NCBI GenBank assembly: GCA_000310025.1
Contig: FN649726.1
Span: 611,303-670,607, forward strand
DNA length: 59,305 nt
Direction of reading: 5' to 3'
DNA from: Ectocarpus siliculosus
Taxonomy: Eukaryota > Sar > Phaeophyceae > Ectocarpales > Ectocarpaceae
In this document: one piece after another, positions 9,070-58,859 of the stretch
How the letters are laid out: the number at the start of each line of letters is the position of its first letter
Position numbering within the stretch: the stretch's first letter is position 1
The notes under the pieces: generated by a model
Told to the model about the DNA's origin: nothing
Seen by the model: the letters and a program-made list of their open reading frames with translations, nothing else
Database searches by the model: none
Made by a program: the position numbers and the translations under genes

Positions 9070-11760
9070 CTAGGGTCCATCGATCCGACCACCCCTCTTC
9101 TGCTCCTGTTGTTGAGGCCATATTATTTGAGACCACCACCACAACGACCTATTAGTCCCCACACACGTAGTTTGGGCCTGCAGTAAGGAGGGGGATGTCT
9201 GGTTTGTATGCTACATGGAATGACAGATCGCCGCGGATCGCGGATGAACGCGGAGGAAAATGTACCCGTCGGATCATGGATCGTGGATCGTGGACTGCTT
9301 CGGACCGTTACAACACGGCCACGTCTTCAACGCACACCCGCTCGCCAATGGGCTACCACGTAGATGCAGATGAACACGTGTCCTGCGGCGAGGTGGATGT
9401 GGTAAGGTACCGTAAGATTGATTGTGGTTTTGATTTTGGTGGCGGGGTGGGGGGGTTGGATAACCCCCCCAGGTGTTTCTTTTTAGTTTGGGGAAAGAAT
9501 GAGAGAAGACTGAAACACTTTGCGCCAGCCAAACTCCCAATCAATCAAGACCACCGCTGGAAGAGACAAATCTGTGAGACTGAAACACTTTGTGCCAGCC
9601 AAACAATTCCAGGGTCTGCTGTTATCCACGGTGCTCACCTTTGTTTCTATACCCTATCGCCCGAAACTCACCAATTTGGTCTGCGCCAACACAACAAAAC
9701 TGGCCAACTTGCTGTGCGGGACCACCGATTGAGGTTGACTGCCGTGCCAACGGTCGTGCCAACGAATGGTGTACGACCTTACCATGTACAACGGCGTGCA
9801 GCAATCACCCAGGCTGTGGTGTGCCGAGCATCAGCAGTCCAAACGGTCCTGTTGTGCAATACATGCCTTGGTATGCTACATGTATGTATGTCCGCCTGCA
9901 CCATGGTCCGCTTGTCGGTTGTAGAATGACACGTTTACCCGTCGGATCCATCCGTGGATCCGTCCACCCGTCTACTTCTGCTGTTCCTGAGGGCATGCTG
10001 TTCGAGACCGCCACCACACTGGCATGTCTTCAGAGCACACTCGCTGGCCAAGCGACCACACACCACACACGTAGCTTGGGCTTGCGGTGAGGTAGATACA
10101 GGGTGGTGGACGGTGGAATGAAAGATCGCCGCGGAAGAACGCGGCGGAACATTCAGCATTTACCCGTCGTCGGATCATGGATCGTGCCGAACGTGTTTCA
10201 TGATGTCGGCACAGACTACTTCTTGGGACCGCTATAGCACCGCCATGTCTTCAGAGCACACTCGCTGGCCAAGCGAAGTTTGGGTCTGCGGTGAGGTGGA
10301 TATCATGGTGGTGCACGGTGGAATGAAAGATCGCCGCGGATCGCGGACGAACGCGGCGGAACATTCAGCATTTACCCGTCGTCGGATCATGGATCGTGCC
10401 GAACGTGTTTCATGATGTCGGCACAGACTACTTCTTGGGACCGCTATAGCACCGCCATGTCTTCAGAGCACACTCGCTGGCCAAGCGAAGTTTGGGTCTG
10501 CGGTGAGGTGGATATCATGGTGGTGCACGGTGGAATGAAAGATCGCCGCGGATCGCGGATGAACGCGGAGGAACATTCAGCATTTACCCATCGTCGGATC
10601 ATGGATCGTGCCGAACGTTTTTCATGCTGTCGGCACAGACTACTGCTTGGGACCGCTATAGCAACGCCATGCCTTCAGAGCACACTCGCTGGCCAAGCGA
10701 AGTTTGGGTCTGCGGTGAGGTGGATATCATGGTGGTGCACGGTGGAATGAAAGATCGCCGCGGATCGCGGATGAACGCGGAGGAACATTCAGCATTTACC
10801 CGTCGTCGGATCATGGATTGTGCCGAACGTTTTTCATGCTGTCGGCACAGGCTACTGCTTGGGACCGTTACAACACGGCCACGTCTTCAACGCACATCCG
10901 CTCACCAATTGGCCTATCACGTATGTACGGTATGTGCATGAACACGTGTCCTGCGGCGACCACCTTCGTTTCTATACCCTATTGTCCGGAACTCACCAAG
11001 TTTGGTCTCTGCGCCAACACAACAAAACTGACCAGCGTGCTGTGCTGTGAGGGACCACCGACCGAGGTTGATTGCTGTCGACCTAACGGTGTTCGACCTA
11101 CGCTAAATGGCTCAATTGTATCAGAGCGTGCAGCAAACACGCAAGCTGTGGTGTGCCCGAGCTTGAGCATGGCGAAGCTACTACCCCGTTGTCCGATACA
11201 TGCCTTGGTATGCTATGTATGTCCGCCTGCGCCATGGTCCCCTGGTCGGCTGTAGAATGGATCGGGTTGGACCCCGAGGTCTATTTACAGTGACTTTTTA
11301 GGTCTAACCCGACGTTTGAACCCACCCTCCTAGGCTCCACCGACGGATGTGTCACACACCGTGGCCGACCCAACACAACCCAATCCAACTCAATTTAACC
11401 CTAGCGCTCACGCACGGCCAAATGCCGGCGTAGCGGCCGCGAACTGGCCGAGAACGCGGCCACATCGCTTTGTCGGAACGCGGAGTAGAGAGGGCGCTGG
11501 AGAGATATGGACCACCGAACCAACGGTTTACCCATCAGAGGGCGTAAAAGTCCGAATAGAGATAGCAGACCGAAAAAAAACTACGACGCGGATGAAAATA
11601 CATTTACCCTCGACCCGTCTTTTGCTGTTGAGGGCATATCGTCTCAGTCGGTGCCACCACACTGGCATGTCTGGAGAGTATACTGATCGGCCGGCAAAGT
11701 GACCGCACATACCTACGTGCAACTGCGGTGAGGTGGATAAACAGGATCTGCAAAGATACG
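9070..11760. repeat. Complex repeat block with duplicated segments
   Basis: Several segments recur in altered order. The stretch with CCGTTACAACACGGCCACG at about 9305 returns at about 10866. The stretch TTTCTATACCCTAT...ACCACCGA at about 9640-9740 returns at about 10968-11060, as does the segment ending in 'TGTATGTCCGCCTGC' and 'CCATGGTC'. A third motif (GAGGGCAT...GCCACCACACTGGCATGTCT) is seen at about 9110, 9990 and 11630. A 212-bp tandem array sits in the middle. Frames of 60-240 codons across it do not look like proteins and mirror the repeat. This could be a decayed transposon cluster or a satellite nucleus; no transposase or reverse transcriptase is visible. Confidence 0.7.
10199..10920. 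repeat. 212-bp tandem repeat, three full copies and a partial
   Basis: The word CATGATGTCGGCACAGACTA (or CATGCTGTCGG...) starts at 10199, 10411, 10623 and 10835, exactly 212 bp apart. The first three units are nearly identical, differing at sites such as GACGAACGCGGCGG versus GATGAACGCGGAGG. The fourth diverges after about 35 bp into the flanking duplicated segment. A degenerate unit precedes the array at about 9990-10198. Inside each unit GATCGCCGCGGATCGCGGA and GGATCATGGATCGTG form short imperfect palindromes. Confidence 0.9.
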
Positions 11761-16500: not shown

Positions 16501-19500
16501 TTGTCCAGCACGAGTAGCTCGACGTTCGCTTCCTTGGCCGCCTTCTTGCCCCGAATCTCCAAGATCGTCGCTTCCCGTCTGGACGAAGCCAACCCAACAA
16601 TTTTCGTCTGACAACCCGAGCAAAACAAACCAAACACGCCAAGGGAGGGGGCGGGGAGCGCGGGGGGGTTCGTCATACAAGGGAGAGAAATCCACAGAGG
16701 GGGGGGGGGTCCCATATTCCAGAGAAAAACCCACATCAATACGAGATTTGTGAATGAGCGGTGATGTTGCCTGCACATGAGGAGACATGGGAAGCAGAGG
16801 GGGGGTGCCTGCAACAAATAACGGCAACGGTGTCTGAAACAAATATTTTTTTCAGAGGTGTTCATCGACGACGGCGCTCCTACTACGTTCATTGCAAGTA
16901 GGACCCAAAAATAGTAGTGTACTCAGGTTTTGTGGACACGCGCCCTCGCGCCCGTCCCCGACTACGTGATGCGTCTGGCGAAAATGCCGCTCTTCGGGTG
17001 AGGCTGTGCCGCGATATTTTCTTCCAACTTTACCGCTTGCCCACGCCGCCGCGGCCCTGCCGCCCTCGTCATGGTGCTTTCGTTTCCACGTGTGCGCTAT
17101 TGTGAGGTCGTGGGGCTTTCGAATCCTTGGGGGGAATGCCACAGGAGATTTTGCGTATGCGCGAAGAACGTGGCCACCACAGGCAACAACACGGCCGCAA
17201 AATTTTGCCGCCGTCCAGACGTGAGAAACCCGGTTTCGCCCGAAACAAATGGTATGGCACGACGGTGGTGGTGGTGGTGGTACGGATGTCCACACTCACC
17301 CTGTCCCAGTAGAAGATTCTGTCGCCAGGTGCAAGGGGGAGGCCCCTCTCCATTTGGACCGATTTGCTGGAGTACTTAGGGATGTCGTCGTCGGCGCCCT
17401 AAAGAAAAGGTCATCAGCAAAAAAAAGACGCTTCACGACGACATAAGCGGCACAAAACAAGGACCATATCGATTTGGCCAACAAAAGGGTAACAATTGAC
17501 AGATACCGTGCGGGCGGGGGGCGGGGTTGAACCAGGGGGCTGGAGGTCGGGAAAGACAGCAAAACTTAACCAAAGCGTTACTGGAGTACAACAAGGCAAG
17601 GGGCGTCACACACGCATAAGTACAACAAGGCATCGCCTATTTACAAGTACAACAAAGCAGAGGCGCCGCATAAGTGCAACAAGGCAGAGGCATCGCACAT
17701 GAATAAGTACAACAAGGCAGCATATGTCGGAAGTGCAGCAAGGCATACGCGGCATATGCCTTGTCGCTCGCTTCGCTGCTGCTGCGCACCTCGCCCCCGT
17801 CTTCGCCAGCGGAGCTCTCTCCCTCCTCCTCCTCCTCCAACTCCCTCTGCTGTCTCCGCAGCTCTAGCTCCTGCTCCGCCCTGCGGCTCTCCTCCTCGTC
17901 CTCCTGGACTTTCTTGGCCTTGAGCTCCAACGCTCGGCTCAGGAACTGTTAAGAAGAGAAGATTATCGGGTCGAGCCGCCCAGTGGCAACAAGAAGAACC
18001 GTCCAGTGTGAAGACGAGGAACCTCTTCAAAGGAGCGGGTACGACTTGAAGACCATTCCGATTGAAAGTTAAGCCCAAGTCGGTGGGTCAAGGGAACTAT
18101 TCTGGCCTCGGTCCGCAGAAACACGGAAAAGACGACAGGCGTGGTCAGAAGCTCAGCTTTTGCCCCCCGCCAATAAATGGCCGGGTCCTACTTGCGGTCA
18201 AGAGAGAGAAAACACAGGGCGCGGTCTCTTGGTGAGTTCCACGGACTTGCGTGTCAAAAAGCAGTCGAGACGCACAGCCAGATAATATTGCACCGGATAC
18301 CATGCCTTCTCTGCCACACCATCAGATTGGATGTCTAAACAGGTAAAATAACGTACACAGGTCGTTCGAGAAAAAAAAAATCCGCCCATCGTGCTCTTTG
18401 CTGTTTCAAGCCGATTCACACGTTGGGACGCGTCTTGCTTGCCCATAGTACACCCAAAGGTATGCAACAAGGCACCAAGTTGCTTCCCGCAATCCCCTCT
18501 CTACCTTCTGCGCGTGCTCCAGCGTAACGTCCCAGTTCTGCTTGGAAAGCTGCTTGCTCTTGCCCTTGGCTTTCCGGAAGTGGTAATCGGCGTCTGCCCA
18601 AGAGTCCTCGGGGCCAAGCGCGCGGTCCTGGCCGGCCTTCTTGCCGGCCATCACCGTGTTGTAGGGGAGCACGCTCTCGACGGGCTTGCCGCGAACGCAC
18701 GCGTACGGCGTCTCCGGCTTGGCGTGGCACGTCAGGCAGAGTGGCAAGAACTGCAGGATGACGAAGCCTGGGGGGGGGGGGGGTGCGGCGGCAGAAGGAG
18801 ATAGGGACACAGGGAGAAACAGAAAAACAAGAAAATAATGTTGAATGGGGGGGGGGGGGGGGGGGGGGGGGGTCTCCCCATNNNNNNNNNNNNNNNNNNN
18901 NNNNNNNNNNNNNNNNNNNNNNNNNNNNNNNNNNNNNNNNNNNNNNNNNNNNNNNNNNNNNNNNNNNNNNNNNNNNNNNNNGGGGGGGGTGTACTCATAG
19001 TCGTGCATGCCGTAGTCGTTTGACCATTGACCTCGCATCCCTACAAAGCCGGGACGGAGCACGCCGGGTTCTCACCGGACCAGGCTCTCACATCACCAAG
19101 CGCGAAGCGCCGTGAGGTATTTGGCGAGTCGCATGAAGGGTGAGCTGCATCCTGCTAAGGGTGTTCGGCATCTTGTGCTTACTTCCTTGCGTACGGATGA
19201 CAGCTACGTATGACTTAATTTATTTTCTGGTGCTTTCACTTCCAGAGACAGTTGTAAGCACTGTGTAACTGCCTCGAGGAAGCTTGACCATTTTAACACA
19301 ACGTGGTGCGATCATCCCCCGTTGCGCGGAGTAAGGGTTCTCGACCCCGCACAACATGATCTACTCGACCACCATTATGGTTACCGCCAAAAAAAAAAAA
19401 CGAGGTGAAAAAAAAAAAACGGTAACCTGGTTGCCGAGTTCACGAAGTGAGTTGGCTTGTTTTACAACGTCGTTGCCAAGCGACGAAAACCCAATCCCGA

Positions 19501-33103: not shown

Positions 33104-36100
33104 GGCCACGAGCAAGAGCGCCAGGAACAGGCATCGAATCCGCAAGAGCAACAAGAAGAGGGAGGCGTTCCCTCCAAGAAGAAGCGTCGGGTGGGGGACA
33201 GGAGGCTACTGGCAGCTGTAGCAGCAGCAGCAGAACCGGCGGCATCATTGACTTCACAAGAGGAAGAAGAAGTAGGACTCTCTGACGAGCTTTTTGACGG
33301 TTACGGCCTGGAAGAAGTGCACGATGCCGGAGGTGGGGTGGGAGGACACGGGCTTTCCCTAGGAATTGCGGGGGAGAGCAACAACGGGGAGTTGCACGAG
33401 AACGGAGGCGGGACTGTTCAAGGGTGGGCGCCGCCGGGGCTCGGCGTTTGCCAACTCTGGGCTCAGCAAGCGTCCTTGCTGAAACGCAAGAAGGGTGAGT
33501 TTATCCTTAATAGGTTGTTAGATGTTGGTGTTGGGGCCCTGCCCCACCTCATGTCACGCGTAGTTTCCGACCGACTGCCGTTTGAAAGCTTAGGCTTCTC
33601 GTGATGTGTGTAATGTAGGCCTTTCGGCATGGCACGTTCGTGGCTGAATAGTTTTCGGTGCAGCAGTATTGGAGACTAGACAACACAAGCAAATGCAACA
33701 ACAACAACAACAACAGCAGCAAGCAAGACATGCTGGGCAGTTCGAACAGAATGAATGTTTAGGCGAGGGGTCAAGACAACAACAACAGCACCAACAGCAG
33801 TAGCAGTATAATTATCGACACCCTCGTCTCCCTCTCGTGCCTCCTCCTCGCCGGCCCGCCCAGCCTCCCCGGTCGGCCTCGGTGTCTCCGCTTCCTTCTT
33901 CTCTTCCTCCCCCTCCCCGTCATCCTCTTCCGCGGAGCCCCCTCTGTCGTCCTCGGCCGGGAAGCGGCAAGCCACCGCCGTCGGCTTCAGCGTCGACGAC
34001 GCCGTCCCCGTGTCCCGGGACGACAAGGCAAAGCTTGTCGGCGGCTACCTGGGGTCCGCCAGGCCGGGCTACGGGGACAAGACTCGCAAGCCGGTCTGGT
34101 GGGCGGCCGAGGTGCCCTGGCGGAAGGGAGTGAGCATCAGCCAGGTGAACGCATTCGATTGGTTGTCCTCGTCATATTGTAAGGATGAGGTGATTGCCGT
34201 TGCTGACACAAGATACCACACCCCCTAGACCGATTTTCGAAGCTCCACTACTCCAAGAAGAAGAGAAACGTCTCGAGGGAATGGTTCCAACGCCGCCATT
34301 TTCGGTACTGTCACTCTTCCGTCTGCGGAGTAATCGAGCTTTGAAAAATGGCCCAGGGGGCGTGATATCTTGTGTCACCTTTGGTACCCACGCGAGAATG
34401 GGCGTCGGCCATGGGGCTGGGTTTCGAAGAACAGCAGAACAGCAGTAGTGTAGGGTTTGACTGCAGTAGCAGGTTCCCTGGGAAGAAGCTGTGAGCACAA
34501 ACGCACCAAAATCCTGACACGTCATTTTCATCGTATTGCCCAATGCCTCTCTTGGCGCGGAAAAAAATACAGATGAACAACGCCACCCTCCACAAGCTGG
34601 TCGTCGCTGTCAAAGCGCACCAGAGGCAGGAACGCCGCGAGGCCCTCGCTAGCGGCAACGGGTTCGTGCCCGACAGCGGGCTGCTCGTGTGCGCCCCCAA
34701 GACCAAGAAGGAGATGTCGCGCCTCATCCGCTCCATCCAAGGTCAGTCCGCCAGTAGGTTCGTCGTGGTTTCGCCTGTTGTTCGTTCTACACGCTTGCTG
34801 TAAGAATAAAAAAACGAGACATATGATAGCCAACAACACAAGCATTCCCGGTTTCGGCAACCAAAATATGGCAATCTCGTCGGTATTACACCTGTAGAAG
34901 GTGTATTTCGTGTTGACATGCTTCTTCGCGAGCTTGGCTCCTAGTCCACGACCTATGGGCGTATGCTGCAACCAAACAACAGCGAGAAACAGCCAACGAC
35001 ACCGATATTCCCGTTTTCTGCGGCGAAACTGTGGCCATCTCGGCGTACCGCATGCTGAGCCCGGCCTTGTGCACTATGGAAGTCCCATGTCTTCGCAAGC
35101 GGACACAATTTTTTCGAAGAATGTCACGGGGTCTTACTAGCATCTCGTTCTCCGCTGTTGGTACACAAACCGTGCGTCGAAGCAGGCCGCAGACTTCAGT
35201 ACGGGAAGGACGGCAAGCGCCCTCCCTGGTGGCCCGCAGATGCTCCCTGGGACAGCGACAGGCCGTTGTCGACCATGAAGCACGGGGAGGTGACGAGTAT
35301 CTTCAAGGCCATGTGAGTGAGAGGGAGGGGGGGCGCAAACTCTTTGCCCATGCTTGAAAAACGCAGCGGATCAGTACGGACAGTACGGAGGTACTGGACT
35401 GAGAGATCGGAACGGTTTTGAATGTGAAGACAGCAGCGACAGTAACAAACACACCAACAACACAGAGAAACTACCGGAGCAATGTGTTTTTGCCGTTGAA
35501 GCTCGCACGACGCCGCCCTTTACTCTTGCGAAAACATGCTTTGCTAAATGAATACCTCCTTCCAGGCGGACATGGACCTGGCGTATCGCCCTTCCGAGTG
35601 TTGCCCCTGTATGTTTGCGAGAGCCAAATTCGTTGAAAGTACATACACATGGTTTACACACGCACTTGGAAACCGGAGCCCTCAAAGCTGTGTGTCGTGT
35701 TTATAGTTTCGTTTTGCTTCTCCTCTCCCCCCGTCGCACCTTTGGCAATGTAGGAAGGAACGATTGGCCATCGATGATCGTTCCTACAATGCTCCTTCCC
35801 TTTTCTCGAGGACGCGCGACCAATAGCCTAACCGCTGAGGCATGCAAAACACGAGTATGCCCTCCCTCGCGAGTTCACGATGGCCACACGACCGAACCAA
35901 TTCCCCGCCTTTCGTTTATGAACAGGATTCGCGAAGGGCTGTTGTTCGACACGGACAGCGGCGGCTCCTCCTCCTCCTCCCCCTCCTCCTCCTCCTCCTC
36001 CTCCTCCTTTTCATCCCCACCTTCGTCAGACTCGGACTCGGGAAAGAACGACAGCCTCGAAGGTCACCAAGACCTCCTCCTCGACAAGACCGGCAACGAC

Positions 36101-36388
36101 AACGTTGTGAACGGCGATGTGGCCTGGGAGGAACGCCCGAACCACCACCGCAGCGGTAGAAGCGGCTTCTTGGGCGGCGACACGGACGGTGGCGGCTTGT
36201 TGGAGAGGCCATCTTCTTTGCTCGCCATGGCGGAGACACACGGCCACCTGATGCCTGCGGCGGCCTCGTTTCTGCCCCAGCAGCACCAGCACCAGCACCA
36301 GCACATGGTGGCGGGAGAGACCTCCCCCAACATGTTCTCGGTTGGTTATGACATGGCGGAAGCCGAATTAAGCCTGGGCGACCTGTGA
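33104..36388 (+). CDS. NRF1/EWG-like nuclear protein with two WWPxDxPW motifs
   Basis: Five exons join in phase: 33104-33494, 33864-34144, 34573-34741, 35186-35312 and 35926-36388 (TGA). Exon 1 follows an in-frame TAG that is its acceptor, so the ATG lies further upstream. The first exon carries an SV40-like nuclear signal (PSKKKRRV) and an acidic stretch. Two similar units follow: DDKAKLVGGYLGSARPGYGD then KPVWWAAEVPW, and TKKEMSRLIRSIQGRRLQYG then KRPPWWPADAPWDSDRPLSTM. The core G-x-G(K/D)-x-(R)KPxWWPxDxPW is the hallmark I know from the DNA-binding domain of animal NRF1 and Drosophila EWG, and the helix before it also agrees. The last exon is disordered: poly-Ser, acidic, QHQHQHQHM, ending EAELSLGDL. 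The likely role is a transcription factor; two copies are unusual, since animal NRF1 has one. The donor after exon 2 could also be GGA|GTGAGC at 34130. Confidence 0.82.
34203..34378. mobile_element. Foldback MITE-like element, copy 5
   Basis: This starts TGACACAAGATACCACACCC and ends GGGGCGTGATATCTTGTGTCA, with inner arms GACCGATTTTCGAAGCTC and GAGCTTTGAAAAATGGC. The terminal inverted repeats span about 40 bp each side. It lies in the second intron of the NRF1-like gene. Confidence 0.8.
34826..35050. repeat. Diverged direct duplication in an intron
   Basis: ATAGCCAACAACACAAGCAT, TCCCGGTTTCGG, ATGGCAATCTCGTCGG (from 34826) returns as ACAGCCAACGACACCGATAT, TCCCGTTTTCTG, GTGGCCATCTCGGCG (from 34990), 164 bp on. 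It lies in the third intron of the NRF1-like gene. Confidence 0.55.
35806..35880 (-). repeat. Dispersed tRNA-like repeat, short inverted copy
   Basis: TCGAGGACGCGCGACCAATA, GCCTAACCGCTGAGGCATGC and ACACGAGTATGCCCTCCC match, in reverse orientation, the core of the repeat at 18982, and match 43595-43660 directly. It ends about 45 bp before the acceptor of the last exon of the NRF1-like gene. Confidence 0.65.
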
Positions 36389-49189: not shown

Positions 49190-51553
49190 TCAGCGGGGAG
49201 ATGCGTCCACGCCGCCGTCGTCATTGCCCTCCCACAACCCCGACGACATGTCCGCCAGAACCCTGTCCGCCTCGTCCCTGCCCCTCTCGCCGCACGCCGC
49301 AAGCGCCGACTCGTGCGTCACCGCGTTGGGCGCGATGCCCCTCCACGCCATCTCCTCCAGCAGCTCGAGCGCCTTCCCCCACCGTCCCCCGTCCGGGCAG
49401 GAGCAGGCCATCAGGGCCGCGTTGTAGGTGAAGACGTTTGGCTCCAAGCCGGCGGCCGGTGCCATCTCCCGCAGGAGCTCCACCGCCTGGTCGACCGCTC
49501 CGGAGTTCCCGCACGCCTGCACGCAGGCATTGTACGCCTGGACGTCGGCGGTGATCCCGGCGCTCGGGAGCTCCCGGAAGAGCTCGACGGCCCTCTCCCA
49601 CTGGCCGCCGTTGCCGCAGGCCTTGATAGTGGCGGTGTAGCTTGCGATGTTCGGGTCCGCTCCCATGGTCGGCATCTCGCGCAGCAGCGACAGCGCCTCC
49701 TCCCACTTGCCGCTGTTGCCGCAGGCCGTGATGGCCGCCGTGTAGGTCCTGTCGTTGGGGGAGACGCCCATCGACGCCATCTCTCGCAGGAGCTCCAGCG
49801 CCTGCTTCCACTGGTCCCCCTTCCCGCACGCGGCGATGGCGGCCGTATAGGAGATGACGTTCGGGGGGACGCTCAGCTCCGCCTGCATCTCCCGCAGCAG
49901 CGCGACGGCTGGCTTCCCCTCGCCCGCGTCGCCGCAAGCCTTGATGGCCACGGTGTAGCTCTGCGCCTTGATCGGAAGCCCCACCGAGGGCATCTCCCGC
50001 AAGAGTGTGAGGGCCATCTCCCACTGCAGCCCCCGGCCCAGCGCCGTCATGCAGTTGTTGTAGCAGACGGCGTCCGGGTTGATCCCCGCCTCCTGCGGCA
50101 TCTCGCGGAGCAGCTCCAGGGCGGGCTTCCACTGGTACGACTGACCGCAGGCGGCGATGGCGTGGCTGTAGCTGACCACCGTCGGCGTTACCCCTACCGT
50201 CGGCATCTCTCGCAGGAGCGCCACCGCCTGCTCCCACTGCTTGCCGTCCCCGCAGGCCGCGATGCACGCGTCGTACCCCATCACGATCGGCTCGACCCCG
50301 TTCTTTTCCATCTCCCTCAAAAGCTCCAACGCCCGCGCCCAGCGCCGCCCCCGGCCGCAGGCCTTGATGGTGACGGCGTAGCACTTGGCCTCTGCAGCAA
50401 CCCCGGCCTCCGACATACTCCGAAGCACAGAAACCGCCTGCTCCCCTCTGTCCCTGTCGCCGGCCGCCCGGACAGCCGCGAGGCACGTCTGGGTGTTCGG
50501 GCGAACCCCCAGGGCGTTCATCTCCTCGAGGAGGTCGACCGCGACCTCCGACTGCCCCCCCGTGCCGCAAGCAGCGATCGCCGTGTTGTAGCAGATGACG
50601 TTCGGCTCGATGCCGGCGGCCTGCATCTCGCGCAGGAGGCCCACGGCCTCCGCGCCCATGCCGCTGATCTTGCAGGCCGTCATGGCGCACACGTAGTGGA
50701 TGGAGTTGAGCTCGACGCCGTGGGCCGACATCTCCTTCAGGAGCGCCACGGAGCGACGCCACTCCCTCCCCTTCCCGCACGCCTTTATCGCGTTCGTGTA
50801 GGTGAGGGCGTCCGGCGTGAGTCCCGCCTCCCGCATCTGCCGCATCACCTCCAGCACGACCTGCCACCTCCCGTCGGCGGCAAAGGTGTTGAGCACGGCG
50901 TTGCACATCACTGTGTCCACCACCCCGGGACACTCGAGGGCTTGCCTCAGGACCCGCTCCGCCTCGTCGCAGTCCCTCCTCATCCCCGCCTGCTGCAGCC
51001 GCCTCATGAACGGGCCCCGTCGGCGCCCGAAGTCCGGCGTCCTGCTCTTCTTGGCTCGCATCGACTCCCTACGCAAGCGCGCGGCAACCCACGGGTGTGG
51101 GGGCGGCGACGTTGCCGCTGCGGCCGCCGCAGCCGCCGCCCGCAAGTTCTTCGCGCCCGTTTCGAAATCAAAGCGACGTCTCATCCCGCCGAAGGCCTCT
51201 CGTCGTGGTGGTGGTGTTGGTTTTCGTCTGTTCTTTTGCTTTCGTTCCCGAGTCCCGCCGCCGTCGCCGTTGAGACCACCTGCCGAATCATTAGAGATCG
51301 GGGTTTCCCAAACGCTGGAAGGATGCGGCGGTTTTGCCTCTGCTGGCGCCGCCGCGGAGTGCTGCTCTGCGGCCAAGGTGCTTCTTCTGCTGCTGGAAGA
51401 TGTGGATATTCTAGCTGAAGTGTTGGCGCCCGTTGCAAGGAGGTCTGTGACTGGTGGTGCCGTTGCTGCCACCGGGGGGGGGTTGGCGAAGCGGCCCCGC
51501 GAGGCCTGGGCGAGGCCTTTCGCCGTCACCGCGGCGGCGCGACGGAAGGTCAT
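49190..51553 (-). CDS. P-class pentatricopeptide repeat (PPR) protein
   Basis: A single uninterrupted frame on the minus strand. From the ATG at 51553 it encodes 787 residues. Residues 1-27 (MTFRRAAAVTAKGLAQASRG...) are rich in Arg/Ala/Lys without acidic residues, like a mitochondrial presequence. Residues 28-210 are disordered, with poly-Ala and basic patches. From about 215 to the end come 15-16 PPR units of 35-36 residues with the consensus YxxAIxACGxGxxWxxALELL + REMxxxGVxPN. PPR proteins bind single-stranded RNA in organelles, affecting processing, stability or translation. No DYW, E, LAGLIDADG or SMR domain follows, so it is P-class. The frame is open upstream to 51634 and contains TCGTTCCAG at 51612, a likely acceptor, so a 5' exon may exist. 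The long opposite-strand frame (49313-51418) is a by-product of GC-rich repeats. Confidence 0.95.
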   Translation of the reverse strand: MTFRRAAAVTAKGLAQASRGRFANPPPVAATAPPVTDLLATGANTSARISTSSSSRRSTLAAEQHSAAAPAEAKPPHPSSVWETPISNDSAGGLNGDGGGTRERKQKNRRKPTPPPRREAFGGMRRRFDFETGAKNLRAAAAAAAAATSPPPHPWVAARLRRESMRAKKSRTPDFGRRRGPFMRRLQQAGMRRDCDEAERVLRQALECPGVVDTVMCNAVLNTFAADGRWQVVLEVMRQMREAGLTPDALTYTNAIKACGKGREWRRSVALLKEMSAHGVELNSIHYVCAMTACKISGMGAEAVGLLREMQAAGIEPNVICYNTAIAACGTGGQSEVAVDLLEEMNALGVRPNTQTCLAAVRAAGDRDRGEQAVSVLRSMSEAGVAAEAKCYAVTIKACGRGRRWARALELLREMEKNGVEPIVMGYDACIAACGDGKQWEQAVALLREMPTVGVTPTVVSYSHAIAACGQSYQWKPALELLREMPQEAGINPDAVCYNNCMTALGRGLQWEMALTLLREMPSVGLPIKAQSYTVAIKACGDAGEGKPAVALLREMQAELSVPPNVISYTAAIAACGKGDQWKQALELLREMASMGVSPNDRTYTAAITACGNSGKWEEALSLLREMPTMGADPNIASYTATIKACGNGGQWERAVELFRELPSAGITADVQAYNACVQACGNSGAVDQAVELLREMAPAAGLEPNVFTYNAALMACSCPDGGRWGKALELLEEMAWRGIAPNAVTHESALAACGERGRDEADRVLADMSSGLWEGNDDGGVDASPR

Positions 51554-52337
51554 GACGCCGACCGAGTGCTGCGCACTCGCCTCCTGCCGGGTCAGATCCT
51601 CACTGTCCCTGGAACGACGAGAAGAGAGGGACAATGTTTTGTGTTTAGCTCCGTGTCAAGGCTATCTTACGTCTGCACTCTTCGGTGATCTCGGTGGCTG
51701 GCAGAAGCGGAGCGATTGTTCTTGATAGAGATCTCCGCCGCACAGAGGCAAGACGTTGGATGCAAACAGGCGCGGGCGTGGGATGACGTCCCGGAGACCA
51801 TTGCTAGGCATAACGTGATGGCGGGGAGACAAGCGGGTGCCTAGTGAAGGGGCGACAAAGCCCGGATGCGGTGTCTGTTCTCTGCAGCTGCTGGCTCGAT
51901 GCACCAACGCGAGGACCACGCGATGCTATGTACAGCAGTGCATATCTCCCATTGGAAATACTGGCTTTCAAGGCTTCCGAGCTACACGACTGCCTGCCCT
52001 ACATGACCATCGTACCTTCTTGCAGGCTTCGGCCGAGGGTTGCCGACGCTACCAAAGCCGCACTCTAACGCCGCGCTGCTGGTATCTGGCCAATGCTGTG
52101 TGTTGTCTGGCTGTCTGGCGGCGGGCGCGGCGGCGACGGGGGTAGCAAAAAAACAAACTCTGCGTGCCCCCTTCTCACGTACCGACCTTGCCCATGACAC
52201 ACAGCACGTTGTTGTTGGTTGCAAGAGAAGGAGAGGAGCCGTGTGAGAGTCAGGGTCATTCGCCAGCTAGCCTGCCATAACAAGAGGAGAGAGAGAGAGA
52301 GAAAAAAGAGAGTCAGCATCCCGTAGACTTCATAGCC
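51554..52337. promoter_or_regulatory. Divergent 5' region of the PPR and dehydratase genes
   Basis: The PPR start (minus) and the dehydratase ATG at 52338 (plus) face away from each other over 784 bp. Both promoters and probably a 5' UTR intron of the PPR gene lie here. A GA-rich tract (52281-52312) precedes the plus-strand ATG by about 30 bp. No TATA box recognised. Confidence 0.45.

Positions 52338-58859
<6,522 letters not shown>

What the first reader, a model, noticed from the sequence alone, without database searches (positions are those of the whole stretch)
33104..36388. Protein with two copies of an NRF1/EWG-type DNA-binding motif
Two units, RPGYGDKTRKPVWWAAEVPW and LQYGKDGKRPPWWPADAPW, each preceded by a similar helix (DDKAKLVGGYL, TKKEMSRLIRSI) and followed by similar ISQM / LSTM segments, resemble the G-x-G-(K)-x-x-x-KPxWWPxDxPW core of the DNA-binding domain of animal NRF1 and Drosophila EWG. 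With the SV40-like PSKKKRRV signal and a Ser/acidic tail, the protein looks like a transcription factor. A duplicated core is not something I know from animals and could bind a longer or two-part site.
Basis: partly seen in the sequence, partly recalled or inferred. Interest (0 to 1): 0.8.

Follow-up and report, generated by a model that had tools for sequence, protein, structure and literature searches.

The report
Brown-alga protein with paired NRF1-type DNA-binding modules
A gene in what appears to be a brown alga encodes a protein with two copies of the core of the DNA-binding domain known from the animal regulator NRF1, in one chain and without a detected NRF1 pairing domain, so it may grip DNA with two hands built into a single protein.

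Summary
Joining exons 33864-34144, 34573-34741 and 35186-35312 (phases fit) gives 192 residues that match Pfam Nrf1_DNA-bind at E=8.1e-7 (29.4 bits, cut-off 23.5), in two stretches; the reversed control does not match it. The 476-residue model scores 26.2 bits. The best solved-structure match is human NRF1 (8k3d, E=4.7e-4). The units resemble each other (shuffle p about 2e-6) about as much as each resembles NRF1 (1e-7, 4e-6). Exon 34573-34741 carries the end of unit 1 and the start of unit 2, so one gene holds both. Limits: each unit alone is below the Pfam cut-off; only a core of about 21 residues around the WW is strongly supported; NRF1's dimerization domain is not detected; its base-reading residues are mostly not kept; exon 1 and the start codon are uncertain. 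No second copy was found in this genome, which carries at least 150 EsV_1_7_cys matches, as expected of a brown alga (expectation recalled). Best reading: a nuclear DNA-binding protein with two NRF1-type modules in one chain and a sequence preference probably unlike NRF1's. A new variant of a known kind.

The parts
33104..33494 (+). Putative exon 1 of the model (partial; an upstream exon with ATG is missing). Acidic, carries PSKKKRRV at 33170-33193
   Evidence: Open frame ending at a GTGAGT donor in phase 1. Third-position GC 0.58, weak codon score. No Pfam match (protein 8). Least certain part
33864..34144 (+). Exon 2: Ser/Pro-rich stretch, helix-like segment DDKAKLVGGYL, and core of unit 1
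   Evidence: CCCAG acceptor, GTGAAC donor, phases fit. Third-position GC 0.88. Nrf1_DNA-bind match
34013..34647 (+). Unit 1 (residues 181-249 of the model, interrupted by the intron 34145-34572): helix, ARPGYGDKTRKPVWWAAEVPW, SISQM, helix
   Evidence: for coordinates. Pfam Nrf1_DNA-bind E=9.5e-4 alone, under the cut-off. NRF1 8k3d E=4.7e-4, matched over unit 1's core
34573..34741 (+). Exon 3: end of unit 1 (NNATLHKLVVAVKAHQ), linker, and start of unit 2 (TKKEMSRLIRSIQ); physically links the units
   Evidence: ATACAG acceptor, GTCAGT donor, phases fit. Third-position GC 0.91
34699..35947 (+). Unit 2 (residues 267-330, interrupted by introns 34742-35185 and 35313-35925): helix, RRLQYGKDGKRPPWWPADAPW, LSTM, helix
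   Evidence: for coordinates. Pfam Nrf1_DNA-bind E=0.018 alone, under the cut-off. Shuffle p about 4e-6 against NRF1
35186..35312 (+). Exon 4: core of unit 2 and most of the following helix
   Evidence: AGCAG acceptor, GTGAGT donor, phases fit. Third-position GC 0.83
35926..36388 (+). Exon 5: end of unit 2 and an acidic, Ser-rich tail to the stop codon
   Evidence: AACAG acceptor, phase fits. Tail of 146 residues, net charge -15. Third-position GC 0.80

Best explanation
A spliced nuclear gene of a brown alga encodes a DNA-binding protein with two modules of the NRF1 DNA-binding type, in one chain, joined by a short linker (residues 250-266 between the units as delimited). In each module a short helix and the aromatic loop that ends in the WWxxxxPW clamp would sit in the DNA major groove, and a second helix would support them. 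Animal NRF1 brings two such domains to a two-part GCGC site by homodimerizing through a separate domain. Here no such domain is detected, and the second module in the same chain would play that part, so one molecule could bind a two-part site. Acidic, serine-rich ends would recruit the transcription machinery. Shown: gene model, the two cores, their relation to NRF1 and to each other. Inferred: fold, DNA binding, two-part site, nuclear location, activation.
For: Pfam Nrf1_DNA-bind over its cut-off with two stretches (stretches counted at permissive thresholds of 10 and 1); the reversed control has no such match, only a WW_2 hit at E=0.12. NRF1 crystal chains are the only convincing solved relatives, 2 of the 4 listed. 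Core identity 9 of 21 for unit 1-NRF1, unit 2-NRF1 and unit 1-unit 2. Shuffle tests 0 of 5000 for these three pairs. Flanks alike between the units in a chosen register: pre-core p=0.0015, post-core p=0.037. One gap over 57 aligned columns between units. Exon 3 holds parts of both units. Both units net basic (+8, +7), both ends net acidic (-9, -15). In NRF1 the isolated DBD is monomeric, can bind the half-site, and needs the dimerization domain for the intact site (PMC10810270, sections read).
Against: Each unit alone stays below the Pfam cut-off (19.4 and 15.2 against 23.5 bits), as does the join of exons 1-2 (16.9 bits). Tested alone, the flanking helices are at best marginally like NRF1's (first helix p 0.085 and 0.038, last helix 0.33 and 0.12, uncorrected, register chosen by eye; last helix between units 0.10). 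Of R206, N242, R244 of NRF1 only R244 has a match, in unit 2; unit 1 has K and V at 242 and 244 (ungapped from the WW). By my register both units are shorter between PW and the last helix. Models of single-exon fragments were poor (pTM 0.21 and 0.18). No relative from another alga and no transcript was available.
Confidence: 0.62

Rival explanations
1. Only one unit is a working DNA-binding domain; the other is a degenerate or repurposed copy used for protein contacts or dimerization.
For: Unit 1 lacks the P after WW and has neither N242 nor R244; unit 2 keeps WWP and R244 but is the weaker Pfam match. In NRF1, alanine at R206, N242 or R244 lowers affinity 5- to 22-fold (PMC10810270).
Against: Both cores keep GxxxxxPxWWxxxxPW with an aromatic (Y) before the G, and both units are basic.
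Confidence: 0.2
2. The protein belongs to a wider, older class of WWP-motif DNA-binding domains that includes plant EIN3 and fungal YDR124W-like proteins, and is no closer to NRF1 than to these.
For: Joined exons 2-4 also touch Pfam YDR124W helical bundle (PF11001) at the unit 2 core, E=0.0011; the EIN3 DNA-binding domain matches the same Pfam family at E=8.5e-4 over 110 residues; both are below its cut-off. EIN3 shows an aromatic, PPPWWP and later helix-like stretch in the same order (sequence; helices inferred).
Against: Direct alignment with EIN3 is weak (p 0.3 unit 1, 0.0096 unit 2, 0.088 for NRF1 itself). The Pfam score for NRF1 is far better than for PF11001, whose contact is 16 residues. 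The NRF1 domain itself does not match PF11001 but has an unrelated-looking sub-cut-off hit at E=0.0018 (PNGase_A_C), so hits near 1e-3 mean little.
Confidence: 0.12
3. The WW cores are short motifs that arose independently, and the protein is not related to NRF1.
For: Strong support is limited to about 21-30 residues rich in rare W; six other places in this genome match the loose WWxx[DE]xPW pattern, no more than the reversed-pattern control.
Against: Composition-preserving shuffles did not reach the observed scores (0 of 5000 for each of three pairs); two cores in one protein each match the same 21-residue block; reversed control negative.
Confidence: 0.06

Closest known systems
NRF1 (human; homologs EWG of Drosophila, P3A2 of sea urchin), Pfam PF10491
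   Same: YG/WG loop, [KR]PxWW....PW core; basic module; helix-like segments on both sides (weakly supported)
   Different: Two modules per chain instead of one; dimerization domain not detected; shorter stretch after PW; base-contact residues mostly changed; host not an animal
EIN3/EIL DNA-binding domain of plants, Pfam PF04873
   Same: Aromatic loop and PPPWWP followed by a helix-like stretch
   Different: No convincing direct similarity; no PF04873 match for the protein
YDR124W-like helical bundle of fungi, Pfam PF11001
   Same: A PxWWP-type segment aligned to unit 2
   Different: 16-17 residues only, below the family cut-off

Membership tests
NRF1 family (PF10491) | Profile match above the curated cut-off | tested here: met
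   29.4 and 26.2 bits against 23.5 for joined exons 2-4 and the 476-residue model. Units alone 19.4 and 15.2 and exons 1-2 16.9 do not reach it
NRF1 family (PF10491) | Core GxG...KPxWWPxDxPW | tested here: met
   9 of 21 identities for each unit; WW, P231, P239, W240 and G225 kept in both. Deviations: unit 1 has A for the P after WW and E for D; unit 2 has Q for the first G and R for K
NRF1 family (PF10491) | Dimerization domain N-terminal to the DBD (aa 54-172 of human NRF1) | tested here: not met
   Best stretches cover profile positions 148-177 and 152-174 of 213; the frame 33104-33604 has no Pfam match. Unseen upstream exon(s) were not tested
NRF1 family (PF10491) | Base-contacting R206, N242, R244 | tested here: not met
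   Ungapped from WW: 242 is K and S, 244 is V and R; R206 has no clear counterpart by eye. Residue roles from PMC10810270
NRF1 family (PF10491) | Helices on both sides of the core | tested here: inconclusive
   Similar between units before the core, marginal against NRF1; fragment models too poor
NRF1 family (PF10491) | Binds GCGCATGCGC and activates transcription | not testable with these tools
   Needs protein and DNA
EIN3/EIL (PF04873) | EIN3_DNA-bd profile match | tested here: not met
   Not listed up to E=10 for the 476-residue model or either unit (filters drop most matches above about 0.1)

The most novel reading that the evidence does not exclude
NRF1-type DNA-binding domains are older than animals and survive in stramenopiles as a tandem version in which a second domain in the same chain replaces homodimerization, and the fold is shared with plant EIN3 and fungal YDR124W-like proteins, making one ancient eukaryotic class of DNA readers.
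Probability: 0.25. Interest if true: 0.8.

Novelty: new variant of a known kind. Interest (0 to 1): 0.6.

Why it matters
NRF1 is studied as an animal regulator of mitochondrial and housekeeping genes. A tandem version in a brown alga, a separate multicellular lineage, would suggest that this DNA-binding module predates animals and can work without NRF1's own dimerization domain, and would give a natural test of how two-part DNA sites are read.

Tried and rejected
Paralogs in the own genome. Joined units: 3 matches, all exons of this gene. Loose WWxx[DE]xPW pattern: 8 places, 2 of them this gene; the reversed-pattern control also gave 6; the 6 others, read, lack the YG...[KR]PxWW block. NRF1 domain: 5 matches, 1 in this gene (E=0.007) and 4 at E=0.758; of these 4, two were read on the matched strand (L014, L015; no WW core), L013 only on the other strand, and the fourth was not fetched. 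Longer pattern: 4 places, 1 of them this gene; one other was translated (L017: RPTWWPFEPPS, without the YG block or the final PW), two were seen only as matched bases. Family searches of the own genome with PF10491 (E up to 0.001), PF04873 and PF11001 (E up to 10) found nothing, but rang in no control genome either and exons are short, so they show no absence.

Viral and prokaryote collections: no confirmed relative of the joined units (4 stretches matched a pattern), of alignment A1 or of the NRF1 domain. These scans need exact peptide words and reach close relatives only.

Crov539 as a viral NRF1 relative (E=0.0083): rejected; the alignment is to repeats, and the paper on it (PMC9525666, title and start of abstract in the listing) describes leucine-rich repeat proteins.

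Structure models of two single-exon fragments were too poor to search with, so no fold search was run.

First exon with ATG: 6 candidates listed for one acceptor phase, none chosen.

Papers: listings (several show only the best 15-20 of up to 128 papers); by title or start of abstract none links NRF1-type domains to brown algae, and no held paper has EIN3, NRF1 and DNA-binding domain together. Word searches inside PMC6040629 and PMC11712027 found no Nrf1. The library holds open-licence papers only.

Full report
What is there. The frame and splice analysis gives a five-exon model, 33104-33494, 33864-34144, 34573-34741, 35186-35312 and 35926-36388, with GT-AG introns and matching phases, 476 residues to the stop. 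The first exon has no ATG, so at least one upstream exon is missing; six candidates were listed and none chosen. Exons 2-5 show third-position GC of 0.80-0.91; the introns are 0.51-0.52 GC. In exons 2-5 the model's frame has the best codon score of the three sense frames, though an antisense frame scores slightly higher in exons 2, 4 and 5. Exon 33104-33494 is weaker: third-position GC 0.58 and a codon score below two other frames (the codon table was trained on one gene of the window). The PSKKKRRV signal lies in that weaker exon.

The two units. Unit 1 is residues 181-249 and unit 2 residues 267-330. Exon 34573-34741 carries the last helix-like stretch of unit 1 and the first of unit 2, which argues against two genes. 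Joined exons 2-4 match Pfam Nrf1_DNA-bind at E=8.1e-7, 29.4 bits; the 476-residue model at E=7.7e-6, 26.2 bits; cut-off 23.5. Under the cut-off: unit 1 alone 19.4 bits (E=9.5e-4), unit 2 alone 15.2 bits (E=0.018), exons 1-2 joined 16.9 bits (E=0.0055). The reversed exons 2-4 have only a WW_2 hit at E=0.12. In the Protein Data Bank the only convincing matches, 2 of 4 listed, are human NRF1 chains 8k3d and 8k4l, E=4.7e-4 and 1.3e-3.

How alike. Smith-Waterman scores against 5000 shuffles each, with a Gumbel fit: unit 1-unit 2 p about 2e-6, unit 1-NRF1 1e-7, unit 2-NRF1 4e-6, none of 5000 reaching the observed score in each case. Core identities are 9 of 21 in all three pairs, so the units are about as far from each other as from NRF1: the duplication, if it was one, is probably not recent. 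The three introns inside the units (one in unit 1, two in unit 2) do not lie at matching places, which also gives no sign of recent exon duplication. Outside the core the units resemble each other (p 0.0015 before, 0.037 after; last helix alone 0.10), but the helices are at best marginally like those of NRF1 (first helix 0.085 and 0.038, last helix 0.33 and 0.12, uncorrected); the registers were chosen by eye.

What NRF1 does. In the crystal structures (PMC10810270; abstract and outline, sections on structure, recognition, discussion and cooperation) a dimerization domain (54-172) and a DNA-binding domain (201-284) are joined by a flexible linker; helix 5 and a long loop enter the major groove; R206, N242 and R244 read the bases of TGCGC; the isolated DNA-binding domain is monomeric and can bind the half-site. 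Here G225, P231, W233, W234, P239 and W240 are kept in both units and W224 is Y in both; N242 is K and S, R244 is V and R; R206 has no clear partner by eye. No dimerization domain was detected. So the protein contains NRF1-type DNA-binding cores but should not be filed as an NRF1 ortholog, and a GCGCATGCGC site should not be assumed.

Mechanism. The simplest reading is a monomeric, two-handed DNA binder: a second DNA-binding module in the same chain does what homodimerization does in NRF1. The basic units (+8, +7) and acidic ends (-9, -15) fit a DNA-binding regulator. Everything beyond the sequence is inferred.

Host. The window's genome has 189 Mb in 492 contigs and at least 150 EsV_1_7_cys matches (150 of the 150 candidates scored, out of 880 candidates; none of the 14 control genomes matched). 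That this family is typical of brown algae is recalled. No other genome of this group could be searched, and no second copy of the gene was found here.

Wider links. The EIN3 DNA-binding domain matches Pfam PF11001 (YDR124W-like) at E=8.5e-4 over 110 residues, and exons 2-4 touch PF11001 at the unit 2 core at E=0.0011; both are under the family cut-off. Direct alignment of EIN3 with unit 1, unit 2 and NRF1 is weak (p 0.3, 0.0096, 0.088). The NRF1 domain does not match PF11001 and has its own stray sub-cut-off hit at E=0.0018 (PNGase_A_C). A common origin is possible but not shown.

Novelty. In the listings and starts of abstracts (15 of 128, 10 of 10 and 20 of 86 papers shown) nothing links NRF1-type domains with brown algae. 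One paper read in passages (PMC8122590) counts the family in the tunicates and other species that it compares. The library holds only open-licence papers, and two surveys of transcription factor evolution that I asked for by identifier are not held (the second identifier was recalled).

Changes made on re-checking: the codon-score statement for exon 1 and the antisense caveat, the number of introns inside the units, the wording of the shared motif, which rows were read, and the stray PNGase_A_C hit.

Noticed in passing
window 49190-51655, - strand: Open frame of 821 residues with a strong pentatricopeptide repeat match (PPR_2, E=8.3e-90, 13 stretches), with a 105-base tandem repeat inside (49595-49872).
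   Followed up: partly
window 52281-52937, + strand: Frame with the start of an NAD-dependent epimerase/dehydratase (Epimerase 21.9 bits, cut-off 20.9; GDP_Man_Dehyd 24.5, cut-off 27).
   Followed up: no
window 10076-10896 and 55585-55879: Tandem arrays of 212-base units (3.9 copies) and 117-base units (2.5 copies).
   Followed up: no
window 18406-19071: A run of unread bases (X in translation) lies in this stretch, a gap or withheld DNA.
   Followed up: no
EIN3 DNA-binding domain against Pfam PF11001 (not in the window): The plant EIN3 domain matches the fungal YDR124W-like helical bundle at E=8.5e-4 over 110 residues, under the cut-off; possible distant relation.
   Followed up: partly
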